Source: Paracoccaceae bacterium | Lineage (GTDB): Bacteria > Pseudomonadota > Alphaproteobacteria > Rhodobacterales > Rhodobacteraceae | Direction of reading: 5' to 3' | DNA length: 64,000 nucleotides | NCBI GenBank assembly: GCA_024304985.1 | Contig: JAMWZC010000010.1 | Span: 1 to 64,000, forward strand | Notes under the pieces: model-generated | Databases searched by the model: none | The model's input: only the letters and a program-made list of their open reading frames with translations | Told to the model about the DNA's origin: nothing | Position numbers and translations under genes: made by a program | Shown here: piece by piece, positions 1-44,187 of the stretch | How positions within the stretch are numbered: position 1 is the first letter of the stretch | Layout: each line of letters begins with the position of its first letter

Positions 1-83
1 CCCGAGAATAACCCTAAATCCATAATCAGAGGTGGCTCACTTCTCGGTGAAAAAAACGGCTCACTTCTGGGTGAAAATCAACA
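1..83. mobile_element. Possible terminal repeats of an IS21-like insertion sequence lying mostly left of the window
   Basis: Two 20-bp near-identical direct repeats, GGCTCACTTCTCGGTGAAAA at 34-53 and a one-base variant at 58-77, lie 24 bp apart. Read on the minus strand the segment starts TGTTGATTTTCACC at base 83 and holds tandem CACC...GAAGTGAGCC units. That resembles, from memory, the multiple terminal repeats of IS21-family elements. No istA/istB gene is inside the window, so the identity rests on repeat layout alone. Confidence 0.4.
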
Positions 84-411: not shown

Positions 412-2328
412 ATGGACCTGCACATGGCACAAGCATCAGTTTTGGCCACAGGGGTCACGCTTGCTTTTCCGCATGTGCTGGCTCCGGTGGTACAAACACC
501 AATAAGACCCTTCTATAGAGATTGTACTACCCCTCAGTCTTCCAGCTTGGCTGAGGCGACGACCTCCTCCTTGTTCGCGTTTCTGGGTCAACGTGGTGGT
601 GGTCTCCCCCATCAGGATGTCACCATAGCACTGCGGGAACTGGTCGCTACGATGGTGGCTATGGCTGAGGGGACAGCCTCCCCGGTCTTCCACCTCTCAA
701 GTCTCGATCCTGGTATCGGCAAGACCACGGCGTTGATCTGCTTCGTCCAGGAACTGTTGAGGTCTGACAAGCACGAGGACGTGGCTGTATTGCTCTGTTT
801 CTCCCAGCTGGAGGAGATAGCCAGGCTGGTCGAGGAGATGGGTCTTGATGAAGCGGACTTCGCTGTCCTGACATCAGATGAGAGGGTCAACGCGCTGAGC
901 GCCACACAGCCCAATCAGGCCCGCGTCCTGTTCACTACCCACTCCATGCTCCGTAGCCGGTGCCGTGGTCGTACCTTCAAGGACGCAGAGGTCTTCCACT
1001 ACCAAGGGGAGGTCCGCGAAGTTCGGATATGGGACGAGGAGATGCTGCCCGGTGAGGTGGTCTCCATCAACACTGACCAGCTTGCAGCCCTGCGTGGCCC
1101 CCTGAGGATGTTGCATCCGGCACTGGTTCATGTGGTGGAAGAGTTGGAACAGGCGCTCAGGGCCTCTGGTGGCCAAGGGACATACGATTGGCCTGATCTC
1201 GAGGAAGTCACAGAGGTCTCCCTCTGGTCAGCCAAGAAGGGTCTGGCACAAGGCCATGCCACCCATCTCGACAGCCTCTATGCGCTCTCAGGTCGCTGTG
1301 TTCTGCTTCGCAAGGCCAGCAACGCATCCACAGTCATCACCGCGCTCGACAGCCGAGACGCGATACCGGACGACCTTGCCCCAGTGGTGATCCTCGACGC
1401 CTCAGGTCGTGTCCGCTCGACGTACAGCCAGTGGGAGAAGCGCAAGGGGAACCTGGTGCGATTGCCATCTGCAGTCAGGAACTATCGCAACCTCACAGTC
1501 CGCGTCATGGACAGAGGGTCTGGAAAGACTGCCTGGTGGACTGATGGAGAGGTTCTGGCCTTGGAGGTCGCCAAGCTGATCGACAGCAAGCCTGACGAGG
1601 AATGGCTGGTGATCTACCAGAAGGGGGGCAACGGTGGGACCATCCCTGATCAGATCATGGGGTTGCTCGGCACAGACCCCGGTCGTGTTCGCTTCCTCAA
1701 CTGGGGTAAGCATCAGGGGACGAACGAGTTCCGGAACATCCGCAACGTCATCTTGGCTGGTCTGAACAACTACGCAGAGACCGACTACGAGATGGCGGCT
1801 CGGCATTATGGCGGCACCCCAAACGACCAAGAGGCCCCCAAGACCCTCGTTGAAGACATGCAGGCCGGTGAACACAAGCACCACATCCTGCAGGCCCTGT
1901 GTCGCTCAGCCGTGAGGCAGAGCAGCGGGTTGGAGTGTGGCCCTTGCAATGCGTACATCATCGCCCCGAAGCGTTCAGGGGTCCGCAAGCTGCTTCCCCA
2001 GGTCTTTCCTGGCTGCAAGGTAGGCATCTGGAAACCGACCAAGAAGAAGGCCAAAGGGAAAGTCGAGGAGGCGCTGGCCTATGTGCAGATGCACTTCGAG
2101 GACTATCCTGATGGGGTCTTGCCGTTCGCCGAGCTTCGGTCTGTCTTGGGCTATGATGCCTCCAACTTCAATAACCGCATCCGCAACCATGACAGCTTCA
2201 AGGCTGGGCTGGAGGATATGGGGATCGAGGAGATCATCCATGGCAAGGGACGCCATCGCAACGCCTTGGCGAAAGTGACGCAGCCCTTCGGCCCCCTGGA
2301 AGGTGCTGAGTACATCGCGGATGTTTGA
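412..2328 (+). CDS. Helicase-like P-loop NTPase of mobile-element type
   Basis: A 638-aa protein with a relaxed Walker A (LDPGIGKTT, residues 98-106) followed by a WDEE box near 207-210 that fits a Walker B/DE motif. A later segment (about 540-555, QALCRSAVRQ) is reminiscent of superfamily-2 motif VI. The C-terminus (about 580-638) is basic and may bind DNA. Together these suggest an ATP-dependent helicase or replication protein of the element. The start is uncertain: ATG at 412 and ATG at 424 both lack a clear Shine-Dalgarno, and the first 50 residues look little conserved, so translation may begin later. It is the only large gene between the window edge and the integrase. I cannot name the family precisely. 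Confidence 0.55.
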   Translation: MDLHMAQASVLATGVTLAFPHVLAPVVQTPIRPFYRDCTTPQSSSLAEATTSSLFAFLGQRGGGLPHQDVTIALRELVATMVAMAEGTASPVFHLSSLDPGIGKTTALICFVQELLRSDKHEDVAVLLCFSQLEEIARLVEEMGLDEADFAVLTSDERVNALSATQPNQARVLFTTHSMLRSRCRGRTFKDAEVFHYQGEVREVRIWDEEMLPGEVVSINTDQLAALRGPLRMLHPALVHVVEELEQALRASGGQGTYDWPDLEEVTEVSLWSAKKGLAQGHATHLDSLYALSGRCVLLRKASNASTVITALDSRDAIPDDLAPVVILDASGRVRSTYSQWEKRKGNLVRLPSAVRNYRNLTVRVMDRGSGKTAWWTDGEVLALEVAKLIDSKPDEEWLVIYQKGGNGGTIPDQIMGLLGTDPGRVRFLNWGKHQGTNEFRNIRNVILAGLNNYAETDYEMAARHYGGTPNDQEAPKTLVEDMQAGEHKHHILQALCRSAVRQSSGLECGPCNAYIIAPKRSGVRKLLPQVFPGCKVGIWKPTKKKAKGKVEEALAYVQMHFEDYPDGVLPFAELRSVLGYDASNFNNRIRNHDSFKAGLEDMGIEEIIHGKGRHRNALAKVTQPFGPLEGAEYIADV

Positions 2329-2369: not shown

Positions 2370-2617
2370 GCTTTACCCCCCCATACCCCCTGACAGGGGC
2401 TACCCCTGCAGCGGTCACCAAAGGGTCAGCTACAGATGGAGCAACAGTGCGGTCTCTCGCGTCCGCTGCTCCTCGACCCGATCAGGCCACCGTAGACCAA
2501 ACCGTAGACCACATGGTGCCTGTTGACTGCCACCCCTGACCTCGGATAGCCCTTGTTTTGCTGGAGCTACCAGCTGATGCGGTGCCTGTAACGGGAACAC
2601 AACGGGGAAACCCAACA

Positions 2618-2699
2618 GCCCCCGGGCACCACTTTATCAGCTAACCCATTGGTATCACTCCAGCTTTTTGCAACTGCAAGGAGCCGTAGACCATGTCGG
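2618..2699 (+). repeat. 82-bp inverted repeat, left copy (tRNA-Phe 3' end plus integrase leader)
   Basis: Bases 2618-2699 are the exact reverse complement of 3876-3957, 82 of 82 positions by eye. This copy begins with the last 14 bases of tRNA-Phe (GCCCCCGGGCACCA) and ends in ATGTCGG, the first codons of the integrase, here pointing into the integrase 3' end. The repeat stops one base before the integrase stop codon. Confidence 0.95.
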
Positions 2700-2700
2700 C

Positions 2701-3882
2701 TCACGTGACTGCCTTCATCCACTTCCTGAGAACGTCCAGAGGGTAGCCTGAGCCGTATCCGTGGCCTACCCCTTCGGTTTGCCAACCGCCGATCTGGTCG
2801 ACGATGTCAGCGGGACACTCAACAGCCCTGAGGCGATCCCGCATTGAATGGCGGAAGCCATGCATCGTGCATCCTTCGGGGACAAACTCTTTCAACCATT
2901 TGTTCAGCGCCGCGCTGGCCGAGTTTGCATTGGTCGTATCTGTCTTGTTGTAGCGAGGAAAGGCGAAGGCAGAAGGGGTCTTCTGTGCGAGGATACGTTC
3001 TGCTGCCCATCGTGCCTCACCCTCGAGGGGAACATCGCGTTCGCTTCCCTTCGTCTTGAGCCGACGCCACGGATGCGGGCGGATACGGGCATAGATCGAT
3101 CCACCGTCTGCGCGGATGAAGTCTTCTGTGGTCATACCCGCTGCTTCGGCCAAGCGCATACCTGTGTCCGAAACCAGCGCAACCAGCCACCGCAGGTCGT
3201 CATCAATCTCCCGGCACTTGGACTGAACCAATGCCAAGGCGTCTGCGGGAACAGGGCTTCGATCTGACGCACCGGCTGATCTGTCGTAGTAGACACCAGT
3301 GAATGGGTTGTTCAGGCTCAGCCCCAACTCACTCGCGGCGAAGTTGGTGACAGCCCTGACGGTGCCAAAGACCCGCGTCATGCTTGTGCCTGCCAGACCA
3401 CGGGCGATCAGACTGTCGCGGAAGGCGTTGGCGTCAGCCTTTGTGTATGCATCGAGGTGCTTGTCGCCGCAGGCATCGATCACATAGCCACAGGCTCTCT
3501 CTGCGGCCCTGTGGAAGGTCACAGACTTCCCCCTGCCCTTCTGCGTCAGGTAAATGCCGACAGCCTCAGACAACACTACAGATGACGAGGAAACAGCAGA
3601 AGGAATATGCGTCACCGCATCAACTCCAGCGATACGCTGCAGCCTCAACATGTGCTTCCCTGGAAGGTCCTTCTCTTGGCTTCGCAGGTGATACCAATAC
3701 TCGTCGAGCTGATCCGCAGCTCTTCTGGCTCGGGCTTCGGCTACTTTCGGGGACCTTGTACGCAAGGAATATGCGATCCGAGGTGACGTGTAGTGGCGTT
3801 TCAACTCACTTGGGATGCGACGACTGAAATAGAAAACCCCGTCTTTCACGAAGGTGAACGTGGGCGAAATGGTCTCCGACAT
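2701..3882 (-). CDS. int: Tyrosine recombinase/integrase of the tRNA-Phe element
   Basis: A 393-aa site-specific recombinase. The N-terminus (FVKDGVFYFSRRIPSEL) resembles the DUF6538-type arm domain of phage integrases. The C-terminal catalytic domain shows DTGMRLAEA (catalytic Arg), KGSERDVPL (Lys), HGFRHSMRDRLR (HxxR), GGW in place of the second His, and a Tyr in the GHGYGSGY region. It presumably integrates and excises the element at the tRNA-Phe 3' end, which lies about 60 bases upstream of its start. The start ATG at 3880-3882 lies inside one arm of an 82-bp inverted repeat whose other arm abuts its stop codon, so the gene sits in an invertible-looking cassette. Confidence 0.92.
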   Translation of the reverse strand: MSETISPTFTFVKDGVFYFSRRIPSELKRHYTSPRIAYSLRTRSPKVAEARARRAADQLDEYWYHLRSQEKDLPGKHMLRLQRIAGVDAVTHIPSAVSSSSVVLSEAVGIYLTQKGRGKSVTFHRAAERACGYVIDACGDKHLDAYTKADANAFRDSLIARGLAGTSMTRVFGTVRAVTNFAASELGLSLNNPFTGVYYDRSAGASDRSPVPADALALVQSKCREIDDDLRWLVALVSDTGMRLAEAAGMTTEDFIRADGGSIYARIRPHPWRRLKTKGSERDVPLEGEARWAAERILAQKTPSAFAFPRYNKTDTTNANSASAALNKWLKEFVPEGCTMHGFRHSMRDRLRAVECPADIVDQIGGWQTEGVGHGYGSGYPLDVLRKWMKAVT

Positions 3883-3957
3883 GGTCTACGGCTCCTTGCA
3901 GTTGCAAAAAGCTGGAGTGATACCAATGGGTTAGCTGATAAAGTGGTGCCCGGGGGC
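3876..3957 (-). repeat. 82-bp inverted repeat, right copy (tRNA-Phe 3' end plus integrase leader)
   Basis: Perfect inverted partner of 2618-2699. It contains the last 14 bases of tRNA-Phe including CCA (3944-3957), the spacer that should hold the integrase promoter and ribosome binding site, and the first integrase codons (start at 3882). Together the two copies enclose 2700-3875. Confidence 0.95.
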
Positions 3958-4018
3958 GGAATCGAACCACCGACACGAGGATTTTCAATCCACTGCTCTA
4001 CCCCTGAGCTACCCGGGC
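3944..4018 (-). tRNA. tRNA-Phe (anticodon GAA)
   Basis: The minus strand folds as a cloverleaf: acceptor GCCCGGG with CCCGGGC, D-arm GCTCAGGGGTAGAGC, anticodon loop TTGAAAA (anticodon GAA), T-arm with GGTTCGATTCC, discriminator A and an encoded CCA at 3944-3946. It lies just after yacG, and its 3' end serves as the attachment site of the element to its left. Confidence 0.96.
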
Positions 4019-43007: not shown

Positions 43008-44187
43008 TCTGAACCACCTTCCCAGCGCTCAGCCCCGCGACAAGCTGCCCCCATCGCTCCATCAGGACACGCCGTTGTTCAAGGTAATCCGTGCGACGAT
43101 AGGCAAGTTGAACCGATGTGCCGGCAACGTGCTGTAGGACCGTCTCTGCGACCTCGTGCGGCGCGTCGGTCGCTTCGGCCAGCCATGTGCGCAGACTGGA
43201 CCGGAAGCCGTGGGGACGCTCTGCCATGCCCCTCCGTTCCATCATCCGCGACATGGTCGCATCGCTGATCACGCCTTTGCGGGATGAGGGGAAGAGGAAA
43301 CCGTTGCGCGCATGCGGTTTCGCCAGTTCGATCACCTTCATCGCTTCCGATGACAGCGGCACTCTAAAGTCTGCATTGCGGCCCTTTCGCCCCTTCAAGG
43401 CCTCGCCGGGAATGGTCCATATGTCGTCTTGGATTTGGTCCAGCATCATAAAGCGCAAAGGTGCGGATCTGACGCCGGTCAGGATCAGCAAGCGCAAAGC
43501 GAGGTGGGTCACAGTGGGTTCAGCAAGGGTAAAATAGAAGGCGGGCACCTCCTGCCACGGCAAGGACGGGATGTTTTGAATTACATGGCGCGTCTTGCCC
43601 AGCAGCGCCTTGGCCTTGTCGGTCGCTTGCAGGTCCACGTCCAAGCCCAGCGCCGCCGCATGGCGCATCACGATGCTAAGGCGGGTCAGCGCCTTGTTGG
43701 CCGTGTCGGCCTTGGTGTGCCAAATGGGTCCGAGAGTGTTCTTGATGTCTTGCTGGTCGATTTCCTCAACAGGGATCTTGCCCAGCTTGGGCAGAACGTG
43801 AAGTTCCAGCGGCGTGAACCATCGACCCGCCTTCCCATCGCCCTTCAATTCAGCCTTGCGGCTCTCGAAGGCATCGGCGGCGATGTTGGCCAAGGTGTTG
43901 AGTGGCTTTGCAGCCTCGCGGCGTTCCCGTTCACGCTCTTTGATCGGATCTTTACCGTCGCGGGCCACGGCTTGCCACTTCGCGGCCTGCGTGCGGGCTT
44001 CCTTGGCAGATACATCGTCCAGTCTGCCAAGCCCCATTTCGCGCCGCCTGCCGTGAACCGTCACCCGCAGCACCCACTGAGCGCCTCCATCATCGCGCTT
44101 GTGGAGCCATAGCCCGCCGCCGTCCGAGTATTTGCCCGGCGCGGTTGTCTTGATCTTAACCGTCGATAGCTTGTGCAGTGCTGGCAT
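42994..44187 (-). CDS. int: P4-type tyrosine integrase of island B
   Basis: A 397-aa integrase from ATG 44187 (a GTG 12 bases upstream is possible). The N-terminus KLSTVKIKTTAPGKYSDGGGLWLHKR is the DUF4102-type arm domain. The catalytic domain shows LTGVRSAPLRFMM (Arg), RPHGFRSSLRTWLAE (HxxR), ETVLQHVAGTSVQLAY (His) and AYRRTDYLEQRR (Tyr). It lies about 140 bases from the right attachment remnant at 44325-44348. It differs clearly from the island A integrase, so the two islands probably arrived separately. Confidence 0.93.
   Translation of the reverse strand: MPALHKLSTVKIKTTAPGKYSDGGGLWLHKRDDGGAQWVLRVTVHGRRREMGLGRLDDVSAKEARTQAAKWQAVARDGKDPIKERERERREAAKPLNTLANIAADAFESRKAELKGDGKAGRWFTPLELHVLPKLGKIPVEEIDQQDIKNTLGPIWHTKADTANKALTRLSIVMRHAAALGLDVDLQATDKAKALLGKTRHVIQNIPSLPWQEVPAFYFTLAEPTVTHLALRLLILTGVRSAPLRFMMLDQIQDDIWTIPGEALKGRKGRNADFRVPLSSEAMKVIELAKPHARNGFLFPSSRKGVISDATMSRMMERRGMAERPHGFRSSLRTWLAEATDAPHEVAETVLQHVAGTSVQLAYRRTDYLEQRRVLMERWGQLVAGLSAGKVVQIVQG

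What the first reader, a model, noticed from the sequence alone, without database searches (positions are those of the whole stretch)
2618..3957. Integrase gene enclosed in a perfect 82-bp inverted repeat that duplicates the tRNA end and its own leader
Both arms (2618-2699, 3876-3957) carry the last 14 bases of tRNA-Phe, the integrase upstream spacer and the first codons ATGTCGG. Recombination between them would flip 2700-3875, yet rebuild the integrase start and leader in either orientation. This could be a self-inverting recombinase switch, or the scar of an att site duplicated in inverse orientation. Ordinary islands have direct, not inverted, att repeats.
Basis: partly seen in the sequence, partly recalled or inferred. 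Interest (0 to 1): 0.72.

Follow-up and report, generated by a model that had tools for sequence, protein, structure and literature searches.

The report
Mobile element with mirror-image attachment sites
A small mobile DNA element beside a tRNA gene carries a second, mirror-image copy of its own insertion site between its integrase gene and its other genes; relatives in many marine bacteria share this layout, and comparison of two sister elements shows the cargo half flipped, a plan that resembles a yeast plasmid more than an ordinary genomic island.

Summary
The 82-bp perfect inverted repeat is real and is neither scar nor assembly error: 103 of 123 distinct homologous integrase loci have such a bracket, 69 of the 103 letter-perfect, against 0 of 35 other tyrosine-integrase loci. 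Complete relatives read tRNA–[core–A]–int–[A'–core'–B']–replication/cargo–[B–core]. The left arm is therefore part of a whole attP lying inverted inside the element, with three arm-type sites (2490, 2502, 2684). An ordinary direct attR also exists, for the window at the end of contig C1. Between two sister elements the cargo half is inverted, with breakpoints in these repeats. Best reading: an integrative element with paired inverted attPs, whose circle resembles the yeast 2-micron plasmid; the cassette's orientation is probably an off-latch (inferred). Amplification by fork inversion is possible but untested. Ten paper searches found no description.

The parts
3944..4018 (-). tRNA-Phe(gaa), host target gene
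   Evidence: ARAGORN
3944..3957 (-). att core (14 nt of tRNA 3' end) of attL
   Evidence: outer end of the inverted repeat; same 14 nt at attR on contig C1
3876..3943 (-). A arm of attL: integrase leader plus first 7 nt of int
   Evidence: arm-type site CCGTAGACCA at 3882-3891 by symmetry with 2684-2693
2701..3882 (-). tyrosine integrase, 393 aa, DUF6538 + Phage_integrase
2490..2699 (+). complete internal attP in inverted orientation (B-core-A read on the + strand)
2632..2699 (+). A' arm of the internal attP
2618..2631 (+). core' of the internal attP
2490..2617 (+). B' arm; 2510-2617 is repeated (99%) next to the attR core on contig C1
2490..2499 (+). arm-type site CCGTAGACCA (B, first)
2502..2511 (+). 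arm-type site CCGTAGACCA (B, second)
2684..2693 (+). arm-type site CCGTAGACCA (A'), overlapping the copied int start
2523..2551 (+). promoter-like TTGACT-N17-ATAGCC, reading toward core', A' and then antisense into int
   Evidence: same spacing in 12 of 15 elements tested; a strict consensus scan found no promoter here
412..2328 (+). 638-aa P-loop protein, putative replication helicase, transcribed toward int; start of the cargo module
   Evidence: homologues in other elements; no Pfam, PHROGs or NCBIfam match
1..83 (.). end of an insertion sequence at the contig end; same end at other contig ends of the genome

Best explanation
The bracket is one visible part of a small integrative element with paired inverted attachment sites. 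Integrated, it reads tRNA-core-A-int-A'-core'-B'-replication/cargo-B-core: a normal attL and attR in direct orientation, plus a complete attP lying inverted between an integrase module and a replication/cargo module (anatomy shown). Excision attL x attR would give a circle with two identical attPs in inverted orientation, dividing it into two unique regions as in the yeast 2-micron plasmid (follows from the anatomy). Recombination between the inverted sites inverts one module against the other; this is shown by comparison for the cargo module, while the enzyme responsible (its own integrase) is inferred. The integrase cassette is found in one orientation only. I infer a latch: a conserved promoter-like motif in each B arm would read into the integrase in the circle or in a flipped cassette (on), but reads antisense through it in the orientation seen (off), so an integrated element keeps recombining until it falls into the silent orientation.
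For: Inverted bracket in 103 of 123 distinct int loci, 69 of 103 with 100% identical arms; 0 of 35 other tyrosine-integrase loci. In an earlier count, the exact arm reached 14-19 nt into the tRNA in 42 of the 55 loci with an upstream tRNA. Both inverted repeats, overlapping only at the core, in 13 complete elements of 4.0-13.3 kb; IR2 205-3183 bp, 100% identical in 6 of the 13 (51 contexts examined, some held twice). Same plan in other alphaproteobacterial families (L227, L230, L232, L240). Window attR on contig C1 in direct orientation. Cargo module inverted between G051 tRNA-Ser(gga) and tRNA-Ser(tga) elements: 5,089 bp at 89.6% on the opposite strand between stretches that align on the same strand; the putative replication gene lies beside int in 7 elements, at the far end in 4, in both arms in 2. 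Arm-type sites with conserved geometry in 15 of 20 attPs, in which A and B copies change together. Within-element A arms differ at 0 sites in three sister elements, while arms of different elements differ at 2-5 of 105 sites. Promoter-like TTGAC-N17-[AT]TA in 12 of 15 B arms. int same direction as the tRNA in 81 of 81 informative loci.
Against: No reads, PCR or circle were seen; inversion is inferred from comparing different elements. 20 of 123 int loci lack the bracket; some of these contigs end too soon, but 12 of 68 loci with at least 1,500 bp downstream lack it. Several contexts with IR1 and long downstream sequence have no IR2, so no attR was located (G668 with about 32 kb, G670b, G522, G617, G051 Leu-cag). 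The promoter-like motif is by eye and a strict scan found none; L069, G051_Thr and L102 lack it. 5 of 20 attPs show no shared arm-type motif. 4 of the 13 complete elements have no recognisable replication protein. The latch also needs the flipped state to be short-lived, which is untested. No clean empty site was found.
Confidence: 0.75

Rival explanations
1. 2-micron-like amplification is the selected function: the excised circle replicates from its own origin, integrase inverts one fork relative to the other during replication, theta replication turns into double rolling circle and many copies arise from one initiation.
For: Two perfect inverted repeats, each with the element's own recombinase site, dividing a small circle; replication-type proteins (G051: DNA primase family 4e-23 and 'replication origin binding' 3.5e-16; weak similarity to proteins of small plasmids); a 4,027-bp element coding for little more than integrase and the putative replication protein (L045); the replication gene inside or beside the repeats; the described 2-micron mechanism (passages of PMC3737535).
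Against: No free multicopy circle was found in the plasmid, phage or viral collections; copy number is not measurable here; 4 of 13 complete elements have no recognised replication protein; the window's own replication gene is assigned only by homology to other elements and a P-loop seen by eye.
Confidence: 0.35
2. Freely reversible integrase switch: the integrase cassette flips back and forth between its arms as a phase-variation device.
For: Perfect arms containing core and arm-type sites; the promoter-like motif would read sense or antisense depending on orientation.
Against: One orientation in 81 of 81 informative loci; a freely flipping cassette should show about half in each.
Confidence: 0.1
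3. The internal inverted attP is a docking site that lets further circles integrate into the element, building composite islands.
For: Extra genes in the int module of many relatives: the gap between int stop and inner arm is at least 60 bp in 40 of 103; a second integrase of the same family in opposite orientation inside L104; a second int copy 32 kb from the first in G051.
Against: attR or attL could serve as well; inverted rather than direct placement is not explained; no array built on the internal attP was delineated.
Confidence: 0.15
4. Assembly artefact or one-off scar of an inverse duplication, kept alike by gene conversion and without function.
For: The window lies at a contig end; 51 of 123 int contigs end within 1 kb after int.
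Against: Same architecture in complete single-contig genomes (G051, G644, G558) and in the finished TM1040 megaplasmid, at many different tRNAs, with co-varying arm-type sites. Contig breaks there are expected from the long B repeats.
Confidence: 0.03

Closest known systems
tRNA-targeted integrative elements / genomic islands with a tyrosine integrase
   Same: Integrase just downstream of a tRNA gene, core = tRNA 3' end, direct attL and attR, varied cargo (type I restriction-modification in four elements).
   Different: A complete third att site, a whole attP, lies inverted between int and cargo, and both modules are bounded by inverted repeats.
Yeast 2-micron plasmid (Flp/FRT)
   Same: Small circle (predicted), own tyrosine recombinase, two inverted repeats each holding a recombination site, two unique regions, both isomers seen by comparison.
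   Different: Bacterial, integrates at tRNA genes, sites are lambda-like attPs with arm-type sites; amplification and a free multicopy state not shown; no partition genes looked for.
Acinetobacter dif (pdif) modules
   Same: Gene modules bounded by inversely oriented tyrosine-recombinase sites (titles and abstract starts only).
   Different: Those use host XerC/XerD and short dif-like sites on plasmids; here the element carries its own integrase and tRNA-derived cores.
Thermococcus pTN3 integrase inversions
   Same: A tRNA-targeting tyrosine integrase shown to invert DNA between inverted att sites in vitro (passages of PMC5495485).
   Different: There the inverted att sites were laboratory substrates; here they are the element's natural layout.

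Membership tests
tRNA-targeted integrative element (tyrosine integrase) | Tyrosine recombinase with a conserved catalytic domain | tested here: met
   Phage_integrase 1.7e-12, phrog_1 integrase 3.1e-34; R243, K276, H341, R344, Y376 invariant in 7 sequences (their catalytic roles recalled)
tRNA-targeted integrative element (tyrosine integrase) | Core = tRNA 3' end, direct repeat at the far end (attR) | tested here: met
   Window: core plus 108 bp of B at the end of contig C1; 13 complete relatives
tRNA-targeted integrative element (tyrosine integrase) | Uninterrupted empty site in a relative | tested here: inconclusive
   Flank not found in the genus; only a weak parallel at another tRNA-Ser for a G051 element
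tRNA-targeted integrative element (tyrosine integrase) | Excision and integration demonstrated | not testable with these tools
   needs PCR or reads
2-micron-type plasmid | Own recombinase; two inverted repeats holding its sites; two unique regions | tested here: met
   in the predicted circle of 13 complete relatives; in the window only IR1 complete, IR2 cut by an IS and the contig end
2-micron-type plasmid | Both inversion isomers exist | tested here: met
   between sister elements, not within one culture
2-micron-type plasmid | Autonomous replication | tested here: inconclusive
   G051 protein matches DNA primase and origin-binding families; window protein has no family match
2-micron-type plasmid | Free multicopy circle, copy number raised by inversion | not testable with these tools
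   no free copy found
2-micron-type plasmid | Rep1/Rep2-STB-like partition | not tested
   -
Phase-variation invertible switch | Both orientations of the invertible cassette observed | tested here: not met
   81 of 81 int cassettes in one orientation
pdif/dif modules | Host XerCD and dif-like sites | tested here: not met
   sites are tRNA 3' ends with arm-type repeats beside an element-borne integrase

The most novel reading that the evidence does not exclude
A widespread bacterial counterpart of the yeast 2-micron plasmid that also integrates: integrase inversion between paired inverted attPs turns one replication initiation into many copies after excision, and after reintegration the same inversion parks the integrase in antisense to a B-arm promoter, so one recombinase serves as amplifier, integrase and its own off-latch.
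Probability: 0.33. Interest if true: 0.93.

Novelty: new variant of a known kind. Interest (0 to 1): 0.85.

Why it matters
Integrative elements at tRNA genes are usually described with one attP and a direct attL/attR pair. A large family with a complete attP lying inverted inside makes three questions directly testable: whether bacteria use 2-micron-like fork-inversion amplification, how an element can latch its own integrase off by orientation alone, and how inverted repeats of 0.2-3.2 kb are kept identical. It also explains why so many draft assemblies break just after this integrase (51 of 123 loci within 1 kb), which hides the cargo (among it type I restriction-modification systems) from island finders.

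Tried and rejected
Assembly artefact and scar: rejected on conservation in complete genomes. Flipped integrase in L089: first taken as the other orientation, rejected after reading the sequence, because the tRNA on the opposite strand is followed by B-arm sequence and so lies inside the internal attP. Two ordinary islands back to back: rejected, as the arms share one core and the second repeat begins at that core. L071 was first counted as a complete element; its second repeat runs off the end of the stretch held, so I dropped it (13, not 14). Free circles: none found in plasmids, phages or viral contigs. Empty site: not found in the genus; the G051 test gave only a weak parallel. Structure prediction of the replication-like protein was not available; sequence search of solved structures gave nothing useful for it. 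Strict promoter scan: none. Counts rest on these rows: integrase matches of at least 40% identity over more than 330 residues, 191 loci reduced to 123 by identical integrase DNA; partial integrases were dropped. One search kept the best 80 of 351 relatives, so the census is of the nearer family.

Full report
1. The observation. The arms are as described: 82 nt, perfect, 1176 nt apart, 14 nt of tRNA-Phe plus 61 nt of leader plus ATGTCGG. The 82-bp sequence occurs exactly twice in the genome. The window begins at the end of contig C2, so the left part of the element is cut off.

2. The far end. The 108 bp left of the left arm (2510-2617) recur at 99% at the end of contig C1, in the other contig orientation, followed by the same 14-nt core and then chromosome. 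Read in the direction of the tRNA this is B-core: an attR in direct orientation. Both contigs break in copies of one insertion-sequence end, also seen at the ends of C7, C8 and C10. The element is therefore bounded by an ordinary direct core pair and, in addition, carries an inverted one.

3. The family. A search of 101 genomes gave relatives with the same bracket. A scan of named genomes returned the best 80 of 351 relatives. With the Ruegeria TM1040 megaplasmid that makes 81 loci, 64 with an exact inverted repeat of at least 25 nt around int; in 42 of the 55 with an upstream tRNA the arm enters the tRNA by 14-19 nt. Further searches found matches in 20 of 394 genomes (family), 24 of 390 (order) and 10 of 385 (class, looser cut-off). 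After removing duplicates and partial genes, 103 of 123 distinct int loci have the bracket; arms are 100% identical in 69, 95-99.9% in 24 and below 95% in 10. The tRNAs are Thr, Leu, Phe, Arg, Ser, Gly and SeC. As a control, 0 of 35 other tyrosine-integrase loci have a bridging repeat; only 6 of those 35 have a tRNA in the stretch, so it is a control for integrases at large more than for tRNA sites.

4. Anatomy of complete elements. In the complete genome G051 a second inverted repeat starts at the core' and ends at a far core. Of 51 contexts (some the same locus held twice) 13 show both repeats meeting at the core and hence a whole element, 4,027 to 13,290 bp, second repeat 205 to 3,183 bp. 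So the site between int and cargo is a whole attP, A'-core'-B', inverted. In G644 and G246 the putative replication gene lies inside both copies of the second repeat; in TM1040 a BRO-family gene does. Against: several contexts with long downstream sequence show no second repeat (G668, G617, G670b, G522, G051 Leu-cag). In more distant families 15 of 19 rows have IR1 (one int counted twice) and L227, L230, L232 and L240 have IR2 at the core as well.

5. attP structure. In 15 of 20 attPs a 10-nt motif occurs once in A and, usually twice about 12 nt apart, in B, all direct: CCGTAGACCA at +66 to +69 and about -100 to -128 in most, CGTAGTACA in Ruegeria relatives, TACTGACCAA at +105 and -101/-112 in the Ser elements. 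A and B copies change together, which argues for integrase arm-type sites. In the window they lie at 2490, 2502 and 2684; the last overlaps the copied integrase start. This gives a simple reason for the ATGTCGG in the left arm: the site extends that far.

6. What inverts. Two sister elements of G051 align on the same strand over int and internal attP (1-2152, 90%), on the opposite strand over 5,089 bp of cargo (89.6%), and again on the same strand at attR. Breakpoints are in the second repeat. Across the family the putative replication gene lies next to int in 7 elements, at the far end in 4, in both arms in 2. The integrase cassette, by contrast, has one orientation: 81 of 81 with an upstream tRNA; L089, the apparent exception, has a whole tRNA copy inside the internal attP.

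7. Replication. The G051 protein (1,091 aa) matches DNA primase (4e-23) and origin-binding (3.5e-16) phage families and weakly proteins of small plasmids. The window protein (412-2328) belongs to a second group shared with TM1040, G644, G246, G670a, L045, L055, L056 and L061; it has no family match, and the two groups did not match each other. Its P-loop is seen by eye. Its role in replication is inference. 9 of the 13 complete elements carry one or the other protein, 4 do not.

8. Mechanism. Shown: anatomy, conservation, cargo inversion by comparison. Inferred: excision to a circle with two inverted attPs, integrase as the inverting enzyme, the latch and amplification. The latch rests on TTGAC-N17-[AT]TA in 12 of 15 B arms, always reading toward the core; in the integrated state it would read antisense through int, after a flip sense. 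A strict scan found no promoter. The constant integrase orientation fits a state that stops once the integrase is silenced, but could also reflect a bias in site choice or selection against the flipped form.

9. Homogenisation. A arms within each of three sister elements differ at 0 positions, between elements at 2-5 of 105. Site-specific exchange alone does not do this; gene conversion or copying during replication is needed. This is unexplained and worth following.

10. Literature. Ten searches of the open-access library: no paper names DUF6538 and no listing describes this layout. Passages only were seen of PMC5495485 and PMC3737535; the rest were listings. Subscription journals and preprints are not held, so absence in print is not proven.

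Noticed in passing
L089 1387-1473: Internal attP with a whole tRNA-Leu copy in place of the first stretch of the B arm, as if the host tRNA had been copied into it from attL.
   Followed up: partly
window 1-83; ends of G000 contigs C1, C7, C8, C10: Contig ends share one insertion-sequence end (looks IS21-like; label recalled, not tested).
   Followed up: partly
L036 16511-17086 and 26855-27430: Identical BRO-family genes in the two B arms of the TM1040 element, with a type I restriction-modification system between.
   Followed up: partly
L019, L021, L026: G051 elements carry long TPR proteins with differing C-terminal parts (a sulfotransferase domain in L019).
   Followed up: no
L016 / L019 10197-10778: Hemerythrin-like gene between int and the internal attP; other relatives also carry extra genes there.
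   Followed up: no
G051:C1 1200961-1202100 (L015): Second int copy 32 kb from the tRNA-Ser(gga) element, without tRNA and without an exact bracket.
   Followed up: no
window 43087-43530, minus strand: Another tyrosine-recombinase domain (402-aa frame) in the same window.
   Followed up: no
L110: A 3-kb contig filed under Desulfuromonadales (MAG) encodes this integrase at 50% identity; transfer or binning error.
   Followed up: no
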